Source: Nitrosopumilaceae archaeon
GTDB lineage: Archaea; Thermoproteota; Nitrososphaeria; Nitrososphaerales; Nitrosopumilaceae
Length of the DNA stretch: 64,000 nt
NCBI GenBank assembly: GCA_900620265.3
Contig: UYNY03000031.1
Location: 1-64,000 of the forward strand
Direction of reading: 5' to 3'
In this document: piece after piece, positions 55,564 through 63,997 of the stretch
Numbering within the stretch: the first letter of the stretch is position 1
Layout of the letters: each line of letters begins with the position of its first letter
Made by a program: the position numbers and the translations under genes
Notes under the pieces: model-generated
The model's input: the letters and a program-made list of their open reading frames with translations, nothing else
What the model was told of the DNA's origin: nothing
Database searches by the model: none

Positions 55564-56142
55564 CTACCGGGCAGGGTCCGGCCGCGGCGTGCCGGAACCG
55601 CCGGCAAGGCCGAGGGATCGGAGCAGCCTCATGCCGTCCTCTGCCTCGCTTCCTGTCATGTCCCACCCGAGCCCCCCGGCCATGCGGGCCGCCTCGACAG
55701 GCGAGCAGTCCCTGCCCGCCGCGCCGTGCCTTGCGGCCGCAAAGTGCAGCATCGCCGCGTGGTAGAGGGGCTCTGACCGGAGGCCGCAGTGGGACCGGCA
55801 CTCTTTGACGATCTCTGATATCACGCCGTACGTGGCGCCGTGCTCGCTCACGGCGGCCTCGGCGCACTCCCGCCCGTCCTCGGTGAGGCGGTATACAAAG
55901 CCGTTGTTGCTCCAAGACGCCATGTCGACGTATATGAGGACGAACGACGAGAGATCCACCAGTGCCCCCGCCAGGCCGCCGCTGTACGGGCCGTAATGGA
56001 GGGCCCTGTAGTCGCGGATCCCAAGTCCGGGGATCCTCTGGGCCTGGAAGTAGAGCAGCTTTTGCATGGCAAGCTTGCCGGTGATTGTCCCGCCGCACGC
56101 GTGAAGGGTCATCTCTATCGCGTCGTAGATGGTCGCGGCCAC
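55564..56142 (-). CDS. Panacea-like domain protein, copy 1
   Basis: A 192-aa protein whose first half matches a Panacea (SocA-like) pattern: ACGG-type CGGTITGKLAMQKLLYFQ, YRALHYGPYSGGLAGALVDL, then SWSNNGFVYRLTEDGREC. The C-terminal part is helical with a long variable tail. It is clearly paralogous to 56880-57422 (shared MAATIYD N-terminus, MQKLLYFQ, YGP(Y/F)S). Panacea domains neutralise toxins in diverse bacterial toxin-antitoxin pairs; here no toxin is evident. Box A (CGTTTTTATCG, 56164-56174 minus) is 27 bp upstream. Confidence 0.65.
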   Translation of the reverse strand: MAATIYDAIEMTLHACGGTITGKLAMQKLLYFQAQRIPGLGIRDYRALHYGPYSGGLAGALVDLSSFVLIYVDMASWSNNGFVYRLTEDGRECAEAAVSEHGATYGVISEIVKECRSHCGLRSEPLYHAAMLHFAAARHGAAGRDCSPVEAARMAGGLGWDMTGSEAEDGMRLLRSLGLAGGSGTPRPDPAR

Positions 56143-56230
56143 GGGCGGCGGCGGGGGCAGTCCCGATAAAAACGTGTCCCGGCGGCGGGGCGATCGCGGT
56201 ACCGCGTACCTAGACAGATCCTGCCCAGGT

Positions 56231-56240
56231 ATCTTGATAT
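56231..56240 (+). promoter_or_regulatory. Weak box A before the TAG-interrupted gene
   Basis: ATCTTGATAT is 27-29 bp upstream of ATG 56265. It supports that start rather than the GTG at 56241. Confidence 0.35.
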
Positions 56241-56264
56241 GTGGATCGGGCGGGCGCGGGCCGC

Positions 56265-56861
56265 ATGCACGAGGACGAGGGGATCGCAGACCCGGGCAGG
56301 TACATCATCGACGACGTCGACGCGTCCGTCATCGTGCTGGCCGGGACGGGCGGGGTGCCGGTCAACGGGAGTACAAAGATGCAGTTGGCGTTCTTCCTGA
56401 TGGCCGATGACATACCGGGGTTTGCCGACCAGGTGGGCTTTGTGCCGCACAGGCTCGGGCCGTACAGCGAGGTCATCGCCAACAGGTGCGCCGTGCTTGC
56501 CAGGGAGGGGGCCGTGCGCGACGACGGGGAGACGATCTTGCTCACGGGCCTAGGCGCGTAGCTGTATGAGGGGACCGGGGCCCGGCTGGACGCCAGGTAC
56601 CTTGAGGCCATGGACGTGTACAAGAAGATGATGAACCCGATGGAGCACGACATGCTGCTGGCATACGTGTACCTGATGTACCCGAACATGTCGTACAGGT
56701 TGGACGACTATGGGCGCATAGTCAAGAACAGGAAGGAGCTGGTAATGTCGCTGATCAAGGACAGGAAGATCAGCTCCCAGCGCGGGTCAGAGCTGTGGGG
56801 AGTCTCGCACTCGGTCGTCATTGCAGAGATGAACAAGAGAAGGATGCAGGTGCTCAGGTGA
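56265..56861 (+). pseudogene. Panacea-like/UPF0175-like protein interrupted by in-frame TAG
   Basis: From ATG 56265 the frame reads VPVNGSTKMQLAFFLMADDI and FVPHRLGPYSEVIANRCAVL, homologous to its two minus-strand neighbours, then stops at TAG 56559-56561 after LLTGLGA. The same frame continues without another stop for 99 codons: LYEGTGARLDARYLEAMDVY, DVYKKMMNPMEHDMLLAYVY, and a C-terminus RKISSQRGSELWGVSHSVVI like UPF0175 antitoxins. One base (AAG to TAG) explains the break, by mutation, sequencing error or readthrough. The downstream part could also start at ATG 56610. Confidence 0.6.
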
Positions 56862-56879
56862 GCTCCACGCCGGGCCGGA

Positions 56880-57422
56880 TCACCTTGTAAGATCCAGAGA
56901 CCTGAGCAGCTTGGCCCCAGCCCGTGCGTCTGATGGATCCATCCGCCATGCTGACTCCACCATTGAGGACATTTGATCCGCATCATAGCCGTGCTCGTCG
57001 TTTTCCACCATTATATGGTGCGACTTGGCGGCGCATGACATTACGATCCCACGTAGGCCGCACGCATCCCTGCACATTTGCACGATCCCGCATATCTGAT
57101 CGTACGTGGCGGCGTATTTTTCGGCCGCCCTCCTGGCGCACCCCTCGCCGCCCTCTGAAAATCTGTACACGTAGCCGTCGTTGCCCCATGATCTCAGCTC
57201 GATCCGTATGAGATCAAACGACGCGAGGGAGAGCAGGGCACCCTGCACATTGCGGCTGAACGGCCCATAGTAACGGTGGACGTGGTCGTTGATCACGGCA
57301 TGTACCTCCGGGATCTTCAGGGACTGGAAGTAGAGCAGCTTTTGCATGGCCGTGCTGCCCGTGACGGTCCCGCCGCACGCGACCATCGTCATCTGGATAA
57401 TGTCGTATATGGTCGCGGCCAT
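56880..57422 (-). CDS. Panacea-like domain protein, copy 2
   Basis: A 180-aa paralogue of 55564-56142: MAATIYDIIQMTMVACGGTV, TGSTAMQKLLYFQSLKIPEV, VHRYYGPFSRNVQGALLSLA and RSWGNDGYVYRFSEGGEGCA. It ends LLRSLDLTR, like LLRSLGLAGG of copy 1. Third positions are less GC-biased than in most neighbours, which may indicate recent acquisition. Box A (CTTATTAACC, 57444-57453 minus) is 27 bp upstream of ATG 57422. Confidence 0.65.
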   Translation of the reverse strand: MAATIYDIIQMTMVACGGTVTGSTAMQKLLYFQSLKIPEVHAVINDHVHRYYGPFSRNVQGALLSLASFDLIRIELRSWGNDGYVYRFSEGGEGCARRAAEKYAATYDQICGIVQMCRDACGLRGIVMSCAAKSHHIMVENDEHGYDADQMSSMVESAWRMDPSDARAGAKLLRSLDLTR

Positions 57423-57485
57423 CGCCGGGGGGCGGGACGGCGCGGTTAATAAGAATTCGCGGGCGGCGGGCCCCCGGATCCGGCC

Positions 57486-57764
57486 CTAGCCGGTCCTGCG
57501 GATCACGTGGTACCCGAACTGCGACCTCACGGGGCCCGACGTGCCGCCGACCGACAGCGAGAAGGCCTCCCTTTCAAACTCCTTTACCATCGCGCCCCTC
57601 CCGAACCACCCAAGGTCGCCGCCCCGCCTGGCGCTGCCGCCGTCGATCGAGACGGCCCTTGCGACTGTGGCAAATTTCTCGCCCCCGTCAAGGCGGGCAA
57701 TGACCCCCTCGGCCTCTGAGAGCTTTTTGACCAGTATGTGCGAGCACTTTACCTTGGATGACAT
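57486..57764 (-). CDS. Parvulin-type peptidyl-prolyl isomerase
   Basis: A 92-aa single-domain parvulin: KCSHILVKKLSEAEGVIARL, DGGSARRGGDLGWFGRGAMV, EFEREAFSLSVGGTSGPVRS and QFGYHVIRRTG are the canonical motifs. No signal peptide, so it acts in the cytoplasm unless exported otherwise. Its ATG overlaps the giant gene's stop codon by one base (TAATG at 57766-57762), so translation is probably coupled to the surface protein. Confidence 0.9.
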   Translation of the reverse strand: MSSKVKCSHILVKKLSEAEGVIARLDGGEKFATVARAVSIDGGSARRGGDLGWFGRGAMVKEFEREAFSLSVGGTSGPVRSQFGYHVIRRTG

Positions 57765-60700
57765 TACTCGTACGACTCTAGGTACTCGAGGGCCAGCTGC
57801 TCTGAGATGCGGAGCTTTTCGAGCACCACCGGGTCCTTTAGCTTTTCGACCCTGACGGGCGCGTCAATGCTGAACGACTCGCCGACCTCGCTCCGTATCG
57901 ACTCTGCGTCAAAGACGAGGGCCGCCTTCCTCCGCTCCTCCTCCACCAGGTCGGCAAAGCTGCCGTGGCTGCGGGTCATCACCGAGACGTGCGGGTCCGC
58001 CAGCCTCTCAAAGCCGGCCTGGGTCAGCTGGAACCACGACCCGTACGAGTTGCGCAGCCACGCGAACCCGTCCTGGTCGGTCCATACGTCGTACCTGCGG
58101 TCGTCCTGGACGAGGTGGTACGTCTCGACGGGGTGCTGGTTGCCCCGCTTGATTGTAAAGGTGGCAGTCTTTGCAGGCAGGGTCGGCTCGCCGGTGAACT
58201 CTACGCCGTCGTTGACATAGGTGGTCGTCTCGCGCCGCTCCACGTCCATGGCCGATATCGCCATCACGTCGGACTTTAGCGGGGCCGTCACCGCGAACGA
58301 GATGGTAAACTCGTGGCAGGTGATCTCCTGCTCTGCGTTGCACTTTTTCTTCTCGACGGTGGCAGAGGTCACGTCCACGTCGACCAGCTCGTCAGGCTGC
58401 TCGTGCCGGACGGCCACGATCTCGTACTCGGCCTCGAGGTCATAGTTCGGTATGACGTCCACGTAGATGTGGGCCTCGGCGTCGGTGAACCTGGAGAGGT
58501 CCGGCACGCCGAGCGAGAGGGTCATCGTCTCCAGGTGGACGGGGGCGTACGCCTTCATGGTGACCGTGTTCACCTGGCCTATCTCGGAGGACTGCCTCGC
58601 AAAGTCGACGTGGAAGTTGTCAGTCACATCGAACGTCCTCCCGTTGAACGAGAACCCCTGGGTGACCCGCAGCTCGTTGCTGTCCCACGTCCTGCCGAAC
58701 GTGGGGTTGAGCTTCCAGTCCTCCTCGGAGCTCCGCTTTATGATCAGTATGTCCAGCGAGACGCGGGAGGCCAGCTGCGGGTCGGCGTTGTCCTCGCAGT
58801 CGTACAGGGCCACGTACCTGCCGGCGGGGGCCTTTCTGATGAACTCGGCGACGGTCAGGCCGTTCTCAAGGTCGATGTCGGCCCTCTCTGGGATCCCGTA
58901 CCGGATCGTGTTGGTCAGCACCTTTAGGACGGCCCCGGCCTCGTTGGCATCGACCCTGTTGCTGACTGCCACGTCTATCCTGCCGTCCCCGAGCCTCGCC
59001 TCTGGTATCTTTAGCGGGGTCTCGTCGATGAACGCGGCCGCCGTTATCAGCGGGATGAGCGGGTCGCCGTCCTGCGAGGTGCACTTTATCTGCGTCTCGT
59101 CGAACTTTGCGCCCGGAGCCTGGGTGATCCTCATGGACCCGAAGAAGGGCTCGTCCTTGAAGGTGAACGTGGGCCGCTCGCGGGCCCGCTGCTCCTCCGG
59201 GGCCTCCTCGACCACGGTGACCAGCCTCGTGACCGGCGCGGCGGATCCCGCCCCGTCGATCGAGCAGGTATACTCTACCATGTACTCGCCCAGCTCGCTC
59301 GTCTGCACGCGGTCGCCGCCGACGGTCGCGTTGGTCGCCATCGGGTTCTGGAACGTGCCGCGCGGGTCGAGGCAGACTGCGCCCGGCTCAAGATACAGCT
59401 CGCCCTGCTCCAGCGTGACCTCGTCGACGCCGGATATGGTCAGGTTGTCGGCCCGCACGTACTGGTGCAGGATGATCGAGGGGGCGTTCCTGGTGCTCAC
59501 CACGGACGTCCAGTTCATCACGCGGTTGTCAAAGTTGTCGCGGCAGCTGAACGTGGCGTTCATCTCGCCCACGTACTCTGGGCGCGGCTGGTCTATGACG
59601 CCAAGATAGCTGTGGAAGTAGGTCCTGACGAACGACTTTGCCGGGAGGCGCTCGTAGGGGGGCTCCGGCGGCTCCAGCGGCGACGGCAGGCCCGCCGGGA
59701 ACACGCCGTATCCTGGCGGGTCGTACGACGCCGGGTTGGCAAGCGGTATGTCGGTCGTCGACGTCCTCGGATCCGGCAGGTTGTCCGTGCAGGTGGCGCC
59801 GATGTCCATGAACTCCGCGCTCGGATCCAGCAGGTACAGGGGCCACGACGGGACGCCGCCGGTGTCAAGGTCCACGAGTATCTTGGGCGGGACCTCGTCC
59901 CGGACGACCTGGAGATCGCCGGTGGTGGAGTTGTCATACCCGTACCTGTCCACGCACTCGTAACTGACTTCGTTACTGCCAAGCTTCGTCTTGTCTATGC
60001 CCGCGTTCGAGACGGGTTCTGCCGTCGTCTCAAAGTTGCCCTGCAGCAGGTCGCGGCAGATACCAATTGGCAGCACGACCGTCTGGTTCTGTATGGTGAA
60101 CGAGGGATCCACGATATCGATCTTTGGTGGGGACCGGTCGCGCACCTTTATCACCCACGTCTCAGTCCTCGTGTTGGGGGGCGTCTCGCTGTCAGAACAC
60201 GTCATCTGGAACCCCCAGTCACCCGGTAACGGGCGGTCAAAGTCGATGGTGCCGCCAAGCGTGTGGCCCCCGACAATCATGCCGTTCTTGCCGTCAATGT
60301 CGGTCGCCAGATTTCCAAGCGGCACGATTGCCGCGGGATCCATTGCGCCCATCTGCCCGGCCTGGTCCATACACCCGTAGGAGGGCCTCGTCCCCGTGTC
60401 AAAGACGGTGATGGGCTCGGCCGCCTCCGCCTCTGTGTTGTTGGCAAAGTTGGGCACTATCTCGGGGGCGGTCCTGTCCTTTACGTCTACCCATCGGGTC
60501 ACCTCTACTGCGTCGTTGCCGTCGCTGTCGGTGCAGGTATAGTTGTGCCTCTGCATGCCGAGCGTGTACAGGTCGACCCCCGCCTCGAACCCGGCGTCCT
60601 TTGTGGGATCGGTGAGATCCGTGCATGTTGCCCCGGGGTCAAGGTCCCCGTACGGCAGCACGTCGTCGGCGGCCACGTCCGACGGGCGCGGGACGTGGTC

Positions 60701-63700
60701 CACCTCGTGCGGGTTCTTGCCCGGCTCCTTGAGCGTGATGACGGGCGGCACCAGGTGGGCGGCCGGCCCCTGCGCCGCATAGCACTCGGGGGCGCTGGTG
60801 GGGAGGGATCCCATGACCTCCCGCGTCCTGTTCATGTCGGGCGGCTCGACGTAGATTGGGCGCCCGTTCGGGGTCAGTATGGTGGGGCCCTTGAACGAGT
60901 CAAAGCTGGCAAGGTGGCCCAGCAGTATGTCGTTGATGCTGATGAACCTTGCCGACTTTTGCTGCTGCGCCACCGTGACGTCCGCCTTTGATATCACCGC
61001 CCTGAGGGTGAGCGGGGTCTCGTCGTTCTCCTGGATGAGGTCCATCGCGATGGTGGGGACTGTAAACGAGGTGGTACTGCCGCTTATCTGGAAGTCAAAG
61101 ATCTCTATGTGGTCAATGCTGCTCTGCACCTGGTAGTACGCTATGGACTGGTTGTCGGGGATCCCCGTGTGGTCGAGGGTGACTGACATGGACCTGTCGC
61201 CGTTGATGGAGGTGTCGAATATGACCGCGTTCTCCATGGCCACGTCAGAGCACGCGGTGGTCACATCCTGCGGGTCCGTAAAGTACCCGGGGATCATCGG
61301 CAGCGCGAGTATCTCGACGGACATACTCACCCTCTGTGCGGCGCCGTTAATGCTGTTGACGCTGTTGTCGTCGCACTCAAAGTCGCGCGTGTACGTGCCC
61401 GGCGTCGATGTGTCAAGAGGCGGCATGCTGTCGGTGACGACCGGGTCGAACTGGCTGCCTCGGTCGCGGACATCGTCGGTGCATTTTACCGTCGGCCACT
61501 CGAAGTTGATGTTCTGGTTGCTCCTGAACTCGGTCGGGCCCGCGTACACCAGCGTCGGGGGTACCTGATCCAGTATGTGGTACGCATCCACATACCGGAT
61601 GGGGTGGTTTCCGCCAGTCTGCACGTTTGTAGTGGTGGTCGTTCCGTCGGCCCGTATCAGTATCGGTATGGGACGGGACAGCAGAACCGAATCATAGTTG
61701 AACGAGCTGAACGTCTTGTACTCTTCCACGCCGATCGCAGGATGCTCTATTCTCGTCCTGGCAACATCTCGCTCTTGGGAGTGTGTGGCCAATGCGACCC
61801 TGAACGAGGTCTCCGCAGGGTCATCTGCGATGACCTTCAGTATCTCCTCCGGAACGGTGGCGGAGGCTGTTATTTTGAAATTAGCAGCCGTACGTGCATT
61901 AGTTTCAGTGGAAGTATAGTTATAGATTGCAAGCCACTTGTTGCCTCCTACAAGCCCGATCTCTATATAGGCTATCGCCAGGCCCCTGCCGTTGTTCTGG
62001 GAGGGATCCTTTTCAATCGAGACGGTCAGGCCGTCGCTTCCGTATGATAGCTCATTTAGCACTTCCGTATCCCTTGATCCACTAGTCGTTCCGGTAGATC
62101 TGTCAGGAGTCCTCGGGTAGAGCGGCCTGTCGGGCAGCACGATCACCGTCCTCATCTCGGATGTGGACTTTGACCTTGTGGGATCGGTGCACGTTATAGT
62201 GACCGTCTTTGTCCCGTGGCTGTCTATCGTGTCCACATCGCCTGCCACGATGTTCGACCTGTCGATCGGGTTGTCATCCCGGTCGAGGCACGTCCCCAGC
62301 GGGTCGGTATACGGGACGCTGTCGTTCCTGATCACGGTGATCGGGTTCGGGCCCGTAAGCGTCAGCTTTGGCGAGTCCGCGTCGGGCACCGACCCCATCC
62401 TGCTCGCCGTGCTGCCGGCCCCGGTGTTCATGGCAAGGTCCGTGCACGTGTACGTGAACGTGTAATCACCCCCCGAGTTCTTGTCAAACGCGGGCGTGGA
62501 CGTGATGGTGAGCGTCTCGGCGTTGGTCAGGTTGCCGTCCACGTTGTCCCGGCAGACGACCCCCGGCTCTACAAGGTCCTCACCGGACGGGAACGTAATG
62601 CCGGATGTCGGCCCGGTCAGAAATATATCCGGGGCCTCTGTATCCGTGACAGGCACCACGTCGACTATCCTCTTGTCCCACGCCGCCTGCCCGACGCCGT
62701 CCTGGCAGGTATAGTCAATCACGTACCTGCCCACGGTCGTAATGTCCACCTTGCCCGATGCCACGGGATCGATGTGCACTGACACCGAGTCCGTGCAGGC
62801 GGCGCCCGGGTCGTGCCACCTCTGACCGCCGTTCCCCTCTGGTATCTCCAGGTACCGCCCGCCGATCACCTGGAGGAACGGCGGGTGCGTGTCGGCGTTG
62901 CTGAACATGGCATTGTTTGAGGTGGGGGTTAGGGTCAGCGTATTGGTATTTCCGGCCGCGTCGGTGCACCGGAGTACTATGGTTACCGTCGTAGTGTGCG
63001 CGGCACGGTGATCCGGCAGCACCGTCGTGACCCCGCCGGAGGTCGACGAGATCACATCAGATGGAAACCCGTCCCCGTTGACATCGTCGCTGCACGTTAT
63101 GTCAAGGCCCGCATAATGGACGCCCTGCCCTCGGATCGTCGAGGGCCCCGTCGCCATATCGAACGTCGGCCGGGTCGTGTCCTCTGCCGGCGAGTCCTCC
63201 ACCACCACCTTCCTGTGCACCTCCGTGGAATCAAAGCCGGCGCACCAGAACCGGGTTGTGTGCTCCTTTGCAACGTCTGCCACGGCCGTCCCGTTGTTCA
63301 GGACGTCCAGGAACCCGCCGTCCGGATCCACGCATATGGCACCGGCGTCGCGGTAGGTGGTCCCCGTTGCCACGACCACGCGCGGGAACCCGACAAGCTC
63401 TATCGTGGGATCCTCGGGGTCTATGACCCCCCCGCTCCGCACAAGCGCGTCGGCCGCCTGGCCGCTTATGGTGCACGCATAACTGACCGTGCCGGCTCCG
63501 ACGGCGTTGATGTTAAAGTTGGTCCGATCCCTTGTCACCGTCCCGACGGCGCCATCGCCGTTGAGGCAGACCACGTCCCTTGGGTCAAAGTCAGGCAGCC
63601 CCGCGCCCTTTGGATTTACCAGCAAGTCGGTCGTGTTGAGTATCAGCACCGGCTTTGCGCCGCCGACCTTTATCGAGCGCGTCGCCTCCTCCGTGTGCGT

Positions 63701-63997
63701 CCCGTCGTTGCAGACGTACGTGACGGTGAACGTGCCAGGTATGCTCCCGTCGATGCTGTCCACCGTCTTAAAGACGGGGTGCGTTATCGTGCTGGTGGTG
63801 AACCCGGGCGGGTAGACATACCCGCCGCTGGTAACGCACTTTGCCCCCGGATCCGTCCAGGGACCGCTGCCAGAGTACGCAGTATCCTCGGGTGTTACTG
63901 TTAGCGTATGGGTCGCGTACGCCTCTCCCATGCCGGCCACGGCAAGGGCCGCCGCCAGCAGGAGCGCCATCCTGCCTACCAACGGGGCACCGTCCAC
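57764..63997 (-). CDS. Giant secreted multi-Ig-like surface protein, 5' end near window edge
   Basis: About 2077 residues open leftward to TAA 57766. A signal peptide (MALLLAAALAVAGMGEAYA, ATG 63970) precedes about 12-13 HYR/DUF5011-like Ig modules, each with a first Cys in (D)PGAxCxD and a second in xYTCxD (for example YTDPLGTCLDRDDNPIDRSN and VTITCTDPTRSKS). Three other regions (about residues 650-800, 930-1090, 1690-2077) are non-repeating beta-rich domains. I see no C-terminal membrane helix or LPXTG-like sorting signal. Likely an adhesin or S-layer-associated protein. The start codon is uncertain: GTG 63997 is in frame and more may lie outside. Confidence 0.8.
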   Translation of the reverse strand: MDGAPLVGRMALLLAAALAVAGMGEAYATHTLTVTPEDTAYSGSGPWTDPGAKCVTSGGYVYPPGFTTSTITHPVFKTVDSIDGSIPGTFTVTYVCNDGTHTEEATRSIKVGGAKPVLILNTTDLLVNPKGAGLPDFDPRDVVCLNGDGAVGTVTRDRTNFNINAVGAGTVSYACTISGQAADALVRSGGVIDPEDPTIELVGFPRVVVATGTTYRDAGAICVDPDGGFLDVLNNGTAVADVAKEHTTRFWCAGFDSTEVHRKVVVEDSPAEDTTRPTFDMATGPSTIRGQGVHYAGLDITCSDDVNGDGFPSDVISSTSGGVTTVLPDHRAAHTTTVTIVLRCTDAAGNTNTLTLTPTSNNAMFSNADTHPPFLQVIGGRYLEIPEGNGGQRWHDPGAACTDSVSVHIDPVASGKVDITTVGRYVIDYTCQDGVGQAAWDKRIVDVVPVTDTEAPDIFLTGPTSGITFPSGEDLVEPGVVCRDNVDGNLTNAETLTITSTPAFDKNSGGDYTFTYTCTDLAMNTGAGSTASRMGSVPDADSPKLTLTGPNPITVIRNDSVPYTDPLGTCLDRDDNPIDRSNIVAGDVDTIDSHGTKTVTITCTDPTRSKSTSEMRTVIVLPDRPLYPRTPDRSTGTTSGSRDTEVLNELSYGSDGLTVSIEKDPSQNNGRGLAIAYIEIGLVGGNKWLAIYNYTSTETNARTAANFKITASATVPEEILKVIADDPAETSFRVALATHSQERDVARTRIEHPAIGVEEYKTFSSFNYDSVLLSRPIPILIRADGTTTTTNVQTGGNHPIRYVDAYHILDQVPPTLVYAGPTEFRSNQNINFEWPTVKCTDDVRDRGSQFDPVVTDSMPPLDTSTPGTYTRDFECDDNSVNSINGAAQRVSMSVEILALPMIPGYFTDPQDVTTACSDVAMENAVIFDTSINGDRSMSVTLDHTGIPDNQSIAYYQVQSSIDHIEIFDFQISGSTTSFTVPTIAMDLIQENDETPLTLRAVISKADVTVAQQQKSARFISINDILLGHLASFDSFKGPTILTPNGRPIYVEPPDMNRTREVMGSLPTSAPECYAAQGPAAHLVPPVITLKEPGKNPHEVDHVPRPSDVAADDVLPYGDLDPGATCTDLTDPTKDAGFEAGVDLYTLGMQRHNYTCTDSDGNDAVEVTRWVDVKDRTAPEIVPNFANNTEAEAAEPITVFDTGTRPSYGCMDQAGQMGAMDPAAIVPLGNLATDIDGKNGMIVGGHTLGGTIDFDRPLPGDWGFQMTCSDSETPPNTRTETWVIKVRDRSPPKIDIVDPSFTIQNQTVVLPIGICRDLLQGNFETTAEPVSNAGIDKTKLGSNEVSYECVDRYGYDNSTTGDLQVVRDEVPPKILVDLDTGGVPSWPLYLLDPSAEFMDIGATCTDNLPDPRTSTTDIPLANPASYDPPGYGVFPAGLPSPLEPPEPPYERLPAKSFVRTYFHSYLGVIDQPRPEYVGEMNATFSCRDNFDNRVMNWTSVVSTRNAPSIILHQYVRADNLTISGVDEVTLEQGELYLEPGAVCLDPRGTFQNPMATNATVGGDRVQTSELGEYMVEYTCSIDGAGSAAPVTRLVTVVEEAPEEQRARERPTFTFKDEPFFGSMRITQAPGAKFDETQIKCTSQDGDPLIPLITAAAFIDETPLKIPEARLGDGRIDVAVSNRVDANEAGAVLKVLTNTIRYGIPERADIDLENGLTVAEFIRKAPAGRYVALYDCEDNADPQLASRVSLDILIIKRSSEEDWKLNPTFGRTWDSNELRVTQGFSFNGRTFDVTDNFHVDFARQSSEIGQVNTVTMKAYAPVHLETMTLSLGVPDLSRFTDAEAHIYVDVIPNYDLEAEYEIVAVRHEQPDELVDVDVTSATVEKKKCNAEQEITCHEFTISFAVTAPLKSDVMAISAMDVERRETTTYVNDGVEFTGEPTLPAKTATFTIKRGNQHPVETYHLVQDDRRYDVWTDQDGFAWLRNSYGSWFQLTQAGFERLADPHVSVMTRSHGSFADLVEEERRKAALVFDAESIRSEVGESFSIDAPVRVEKLKDPVVLEKLRISEQLALEYLESYE

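What the first reader, a model, noticed from the sequence alone, without database searches (positions are those of the whole stretch)
55564..57422. Three homologous Panacea-like genes clustered in 1.9 kb, two leftward and one rightward carrying a TAG
Two minus-strand genes share MAATIYD, MQKLLYFQ and YGP(F/Y)S motifs, and the plus-strand gene between them has the equivalents STKMQLAFFL and RLGPYS plus a UPF0175-like tail. Panacea domains act as antitoxins in many bacterial toxin-antitoxin pairs, and UPF0175 proteins are antitoxin-like. No classical toxin gene sits beside them, so this may be an undescribed archaeal TA, defence or regulation module. Presence of three relatives in different orientations suggests repeated duplication.
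Basis: partly seen in the sequence, partly recalled or inferred. Interest (0 to 1): 0.72.

Follow-up and report, generated by a model that had tools for sequence, protein, structure and literature searches.

The report
Orphan antitoxin-like genes, partner enzymes missing
Three small neighbouring genes in a probably sponge-associated ammonia-oxidising archaeon are relatives of toxin-neutralising proteins; their partner enzymes (a DNA-building-block-destroying enzyme for two of them, an RNA-cutting toxin for the third) sit next to their relatives elsewhere but are missing here, so the cluster looks like the leftover antidote halves of two different two-gene systems.

Summary
A (55564-56142, -) and B (56880-57422, -) are sister paralogues (46% identical). 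C (56241/56265-56861, +, TAG at 56559) shares only their N-terminal domain. None matches Panacea in Pfam; the shared domain belongs to a wider Panacea/SocA and DarG toxin-binding superfamily (B's model matches DarG in 7yk3; haloarchaeal proteins bridge to Panacea). The absent toxins are explained. In eight Nitrosopumilaceae genomes an A/B relative overlaps a downstream SAMHD1/EF1143-like HD dNTPase gene; four more loci keep broken copies, and a Bacillota HD gene has a related neighbour. C belongs to a family expanded in this genome (about 15 close and 20 distant copies) with a UPF0175-type helix-turn-helix tail; relatives sit directly upstream of PIN-type toxin genes, some in tandem arrays. 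No HD or PIN gene or remnant was found in the 64-kb window. Best reading: orphaned partner proteins of two different two-gene systems, A and B intact, C probably a pseudogene. New: the HD pairing and its loss. Pairing, decay and domain make-up are shown by sequence; neutralisation and present role are inferred.

The parts
55564..56142 (-). Gene A, 192 aa (GTG start): A/B-family protein, DarG-toxin-binding/Panacea-superfamily fold; orphan of an HD dNTPase partner
   Evidence: 46% identical to B; A3 profile E 2e-76; DarG C-terminal match 3e-4 and 1e-4; third-position G+C 0.85
56165..56172 (-). TATA-like TTTTTATC, 23-30 bases before the start of A (leaderless pattern; by eye, inference)
   Evidence: sequence printed
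56233..56240 (+). TATA-like CTTGATAT, 25-32 bases before the ATG of C at 56265 (by eye, inference)
   Evidence: sequence printed
56241..56861 (+). Gene C, antitoxin-type reading frame with in-frame TAG (likely true start ATG 56265)
   Evidence: frame open under TAG=X; A2 profile E 1e-69 across the TAG
56310..56594 (+). C, N-terminal domain shared with A and B
   Evidence: hhalign A2 vs A3 96.8%; PADLOC PDC-M19A 4.9e-6
56559..56561 (+). in-frame TAG of C, in a variable column where relatives often have E, K or R
56721..56843 (+). C, UPF0175-type helix-turn-helix tail
   Evidence: UPF0175 0.13 for C itself, 4e-4 to 3.9e-11 in relatives
56880..57422 (-). Gene B, 180 aa: sister of A, orphan of an HD dNTPase partner; convergent with C, 18 bases apart
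   Evidence: model pLDDT 90, match to DarG in 7yk3
57446..57455 (-). TATA-like TTCTTATTAA, 24-33 bases before the start of B (by eye, inference)
   Evidence: sequence printed

Best explanation
The cluster holds the antidote or regulator halves of two different two-gene systems, each without its enzyme. A and B are sister copies of a small winged-helix-like protein that elsewhere is the first gene of an operon with an HD-superfamily dNTPase (SAMHD1/EF1143-like); by analogy with DarG and Panacea it is inferred to bind and restrain that enzyme. C is a decayed antitoxin: its N-terminal domain would bind a PIN-type ribonuclease toxin, and its UPF0175-type helix-turn-helix tail would bind DNA for autoregulation. 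Here A and B have no HD partner, and C has a premature TAG and no PIN gene. A and B are intact and look coding; they may buffer leftover or incoming enzymes of the same kind, act on the genome's stand-alone HD protein, or simply decay more slowly than the enzyme did. Shown: domain make-up, operon partners in relatives, absence of partners here, decay states of other copies. Inferred: binding, neutralisation, dNTPase and RNase activities, any present role.
For: A/B family: in G009, G025, G136, G209, G183, G104, G285 and G284 the gene is directly followed by an HD gene with open frames overlapping by 7-31 bases; four further loci (G025 x2, G120 x2) keep a broken HD gene. The HD proteins carry Pfam HD + HD_assoc_2, match SAMHD1 at 7e-32 and EF1143 (2o6i) at 6e-30 and keep the H/HD motifs. 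In Priestia megaterium an HD + HD_assoc_2 gene is followed after 23 bases by a relative of A/B (45 bits against the A/B profile), gene order reversed. Model of B (pLDDT 90): the only significant PDB match is DarG bound to DarT, 7yk3, E 3e-4, TM 0.6. C family: PIN-type genes overlap or directly follow relatives in C17 (x2), C40 (x2), G019 and a Methanomethylophilaceae MAG and alternate with antitoxin-like genes in C113, C93 and C55; toxin remnants lie behind other copies. UPF0175 3.9e-11 in a family member; UPF0175/COG2886 is a predicted PIN antitoxin in archaea (PMC2701414). No PIN or HD profile hit in the whole window at E 5. The genome's only HD hit is a 37% stand-alone gene without an A/B-like neighbour.
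Against: No binding, toxicity or enzyme activity was measured. The HD pair could be a regulated housekeeping enzyme rather than a toxin-antitoxin pair. The genome is a 113-contig draft, 96% complete, so a partner elsewhere could be missing. The TAG in C could be a sequencing or assembly error. The model of C's family has no significant PDB match. The PIN assignment rests on acidic-residue motifs, DUF3368 at 2.7e-5, PADLOC PDC-S70 at 1.5e-12 and a weak PIN structure match at 0.049.
Confidence: 0.7

Rival explanations
1. A and B are not leftovers but working regulators in trans: they bind the genome's stand-alone HD dNTPase and adjust dNTP levels, as a duplicated, uncoupled form of the Bacillota HD/YwgA-like pair.
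For: Window genome and G105 both keep a stand-alone HD protein (37-38% identity to the operon HD) and have uncoupled A/B genes. In Priestia the pair sits among core-type genes. A vs B dN/dS about 0.45 (dN 0.47, dS 1.04) suggests selection on the protein.
Against: G104 and G136 have both HD kinds, and there the A/B gene sits with the operon kind, not the stand-alone one. Broken HD genes beside intact A/B genes point to decay of a pair.
Confidence: 0.2
2. A and B are DNA-binding transcription regulators of nearby genes, unrelated to neutralisation.
For: Winged-helix-type fold; lower-ranked structure matches are MarR- and PadR-type regulators.
Against: The only significant match is a toxin-binding domain; the conserved neighbour is an enzyme gene, not a regulated pathway.
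Confidence: 0.1
3. C is functional: the TAG is a sequencing or assembly error (or is read through), and C neutralises PIN toxins encoded elsewhere in the genome.
For: Frame and third-position G+C unchanged after the TAG; many PIN-type genes elsewhere in the genome.
Against: A second family member (C69) also has an in-frame TAG and an incomplete toxin behind it, a pattern of decay; antitoxin-toxin pairs are usually specific.
Confidence: 0.25

Closest known systems
UPF0175/COG2886-PIN type II toxin-antitoxin pairs of archaea (PMC2701414)
   Same: C's tail is of this type and PIN-type genes directly follow its relatives
   Different: C's family carries an extra N-terminal Panacea/DarG-like domain; in the window C has a TAG and no PIN gene
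DarTG, the DarT-binding C-terminal domain of DarG (PDB 7yk3)
   Same: fold of B along nearly its whole length; weak profile matches
   Different: no macrodomain; no DarT in the genome; the family's operon partner is an HD enzyme
Panacea/SocA (PF13274) antitoxins (PMC8832971)
   Same: layout of conserved motifs; transitive profile link through haloarchaeal proteins, one of which (WP_049938427.1) that paper lists as a DUF4065 protein
   Different: no Pfam match; no direct profile similarity to this genome's own Panacea genes
HD/YwgA-like gene pair of Bacillota (B. subtilis ywfO-ywgA is recalled from memory; checked here only in Priestia megaterium)
   Same: HD + HD_assoc_2 gene next to a relative of A/B
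   Different: gene order reversed; core-type gene setting; no account of YwgA's function found
Clover (CloA dNTPase + CloB) anti-phage system (PMC12265719)
   Same: an HD dNTPase kept in check by the product of a neighbouring gene
   Different: CloB is a nucleotidyltransferase that makes an inhibitory nucleotide; A/B match no such domain

Membership tests
Panacea (PF13274) | match to the Pfam profile over its cut-off | tested here: not met
   no match for A, B or C at E 10; not among the matches of A2 or A3 members; hhalign to own-genome Panacea genes 0.3-0.6%
Panacea (PF13274) | superfamily relationship through intermediates | tested here: met
   haloarchaeal proteins hit PF13274 (1.3e-6, 2.9e-5, 6e-4) and match A2 at 99.4% and A3 at 97.8%
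DarG | fold of the toxin-binding C-terminal domain (tested for B) | tested here: met
   model of B vs 7yk3 E 3e-4, probability 1.00, TM 0.6
DarG | macrodomain and adjacent DarT | tested here: not met
   180-192 aa proteins, no macrodomain match; no DarT in the genome
UPF0175-PIN toxin-antitoxin (gene C) | UPF0175 helix-turn-helix | tested here: inconclusive
   0.13 for C itself, below cut-off; family members 4e-4 to 3.9e-11
UPF0175-PIN toxin-antitoxin (gene C) | adjacent PIN toxin gene | tested here: not met
   present beside relatives but not beside C or anywhere in the window
UPF0175-PIN toxin-antitoxin (gene C) | neutralisation of the toxin | not testable with these tools
   needs a growth assay
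A/B-type partner of an HD dNTPase | homology to the operon partner of HD + HD_assoc_2 genes | tested here: met
   profile, tree, and intact operons in 8 genomes; Priestia protein 45 bits
A/B-type partner of an HD dNTPase | adjacent HD gene | tested here: not met
   no HD profile hit in the window
A/B-type partner of an HD dNTPase | binding to or inhibition of the enzyme | not testable with these tools
   no complex prediction or assay available

The most novel reading that the evidence does not exclude
The A/B-HD pair, found in several Nitrosopumilaceae and seen once in Bacillota, is an undescribed toxin-antitoxin or anti-viral module in which a DarG/Panacea-like protein restrains a SAMHD1-like dNTPase, and some symbiont lineages keep and multiply only the antidote, as immunity against such modules.
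Probability: 0.3. Interest if true: 0.75.

Novelty: new variant of a known kind. Interest (0 to 1): 0.45.

Why it matters
It turns an unexplained cluster into a testable pairing: a Panacea/DarG-superfamily protein as operon partner of SAMHD1-like dNTPases, supported by overlapping genes in eight archaeal genomes and by a reversed gene order in a bacterium. If the small protein restrains the enzyme, this would be a protein-based control for dNTPases of the type used against viruses. The window genome and G105 (by its size probably Cenarchaeum symbiosum A) also give natural material for asking why antidote-type genes outlive and outnumber their toxins.

Tried and rejected
Membership in Panacea proper: rejected by Pfam and by direct profile comparison; only a transitive link remains. 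DarTG: no DarT in the genome. Viral, plasmid or phage carriage of the A/B family: no hits in viral contigs, plasmids or phages. Structure search with the model of C's family gave nothing significant. Literature searches found no account of YwgA function and no A/B-HD toxin-antitoxin system. Pieces of HD or PIN genes in the window: none. HD genes on other bacterial plasmids looked at (Listeria, S. aureus, Klebsiella) had no obvious small A/B-like neighbour by annotation, so the bacterial pairing is shown for one record only.

Full report
Observation. Genes A (55564-56142, -), C (56241 or 56265 to 56861, +, TAG at 56559) and B (56880-57422, -) are present as described. A and B are 46% identical over their length and form a fully supported pair in a tree of 24 relatives. 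C resembles B only over 56 residues and has no meaningful BLASTP match to A, but a profile of C's own relatives, built without A and B, finds both (5e-8 and 6e-6), and profile-profile comparison gives 96.8% over 83 columns. Third-position G+C supports coding in all three, in C also beyond the TAG.

What the shared domain is. Pfam finds no Panacea in any of the three. NCBIfam and PADLOC place A in the C-terminal region of DarG (3e-4 and 1e-4). The predicted structure of B (mean pLDDT 90) has one significant match among solved structures, DarG in the M. tuberculosis DarTG complex (7yk3, E 3e-4, TM 0.6). Haloarchaeal plasmid proteins that score with the Panacea profile match C's family at 99.4% and the A/B family at 97.8% in profile comparison; one of them, WP_049938427.1, is listed as a DUF4065 protein in the Panacea paper (PMC8832971). 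Direct comparison with this genome's own Panacea genes gives nothing. So 'Panacea-like' is right as a superfamily label and wrong as a family label.

Gene C. A search with C finds about 20 relatives in the same genome and few in 99 related genomes; a profile finds 39 matching places in the genome (window A and B among them), of which 15 are close. Members have the N-terminal domain and a C-terminal helix-turn-helix of UPF0175 type (one relative 3.9e-11). UPF0175/COG2886 is a predicted antitoxin of PIN toxins in archaea (PMC2701414). Directly behind two copies in C17, two in C40, one in G019 and a Methanomethylophilaceae gene (L050) lies a PIN-type gene: conserved acidic residues, DUF3368 at 2.7e-5, PADLOC PDC-S70 at 1.5e-12. 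In contigs C113, C93 and C55 antitoxin-like and PIN-type genes alternate in tandem. Behind several other copies only toxin pieces are left. Of the 15 close copies only three have an intact-looking PIN gene directly behind them. In the window there is none, and C itself has a TAG. A second copy with an in-frame TAG (C69) is followed by a PIN-type gene that lacks its N-terminus. C is therefore most likely a decayed orphan antitoxin.

Genes A and B. Full-length relatives occur patchily in the family. In eight genomes the gene is followed, with overlapping frames, by an HD-superfamily gene; in four more loci the HD gene is broken, once with transposase-like frames at the break. The HD proteins carry HD + HD_assoc_2, match SAMHD1 and EF1143 structures and keep the H/HD motifs. 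In Priestia megaterium the same kind of HD gene is followed by a relative of A/B, in reversed order, which makes a functional link more likely. Genome G105 (one contig of 2,045,086 bases, the size recalled for Cenarchaeum symbiosum A) has 11 A/B-family places, seven genes in one array, and no HD beside any that was looked at. The window genome has A and B and only a stand-alone HD gene of 37% identity. A and B are therefore orphans too, but intact.

How it most likely works. By analogy with DarG and Panacea the small protein binds its partner enzyme and keeps it off; in the HD pair the enzyme would deplete dNTPs, in the PIN pair it would cut RNA. A two-gene dNTPase system with a restraining partner is known (Clover, PMC12265719), with an unrelated restrainer. 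Losing the enzyme first is the harmless order of decay for such a pair, and this is what the copies show: many antidote-type genes, fewer toxins, several toxin remnants. Whether A and B still do something (buffering, control of the stand-alone HD protein) is open; A versus B has dN 0.47 and dS 1.04, which suggests some constraint on the protein since their split.

Limits. No activity was measured. The genome is a draft and unnamed. G+C near 68% in the window fits high-GC sponge symbionts (66% reported for Ca. Cenporiarchaeum stylissum, PMC6697440), but this is inference. The bacterial pairing was seen in one record only.

Noticed in passing
L107 (own genome C113:3393-12317): Tandem array of about eight antitoxin-like genes and five PIN-type genes on one strand; four of the PIN genes are 66-84% identical to the first.
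   Followed up: partly
L154 (G105:C1:1992071-1997334): Seven A/B-family genes in a row without any HD partner, in a genome of the size recalled for Cenarchaeum symbiosum A.
   Followed up: partly
L103:2821-3801: HD gene of an A/B-HD pair truncated, with transposase-like frames at the break.
   Followed up: no
window 57764-63997; L051, L054, L055, L057, L063: Giant related proteins (probably surface, repeat-rich) lie near several C-family genes.
   Followed up: no
own genome C46, C66, C35, C25, C73, C53, C61: Seven true Panacea (PF13274) genes; those on C25, C53 and C73 share the contig with C-family genes.
   Followed up: partly
L054:6136-7684 (C69:58135-59683): Second C-family gene with a single in-frame TAG, at the Tyr of GPYS, followed by a PIN-type gene lacking its N-terminus.
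   Followed up: partly
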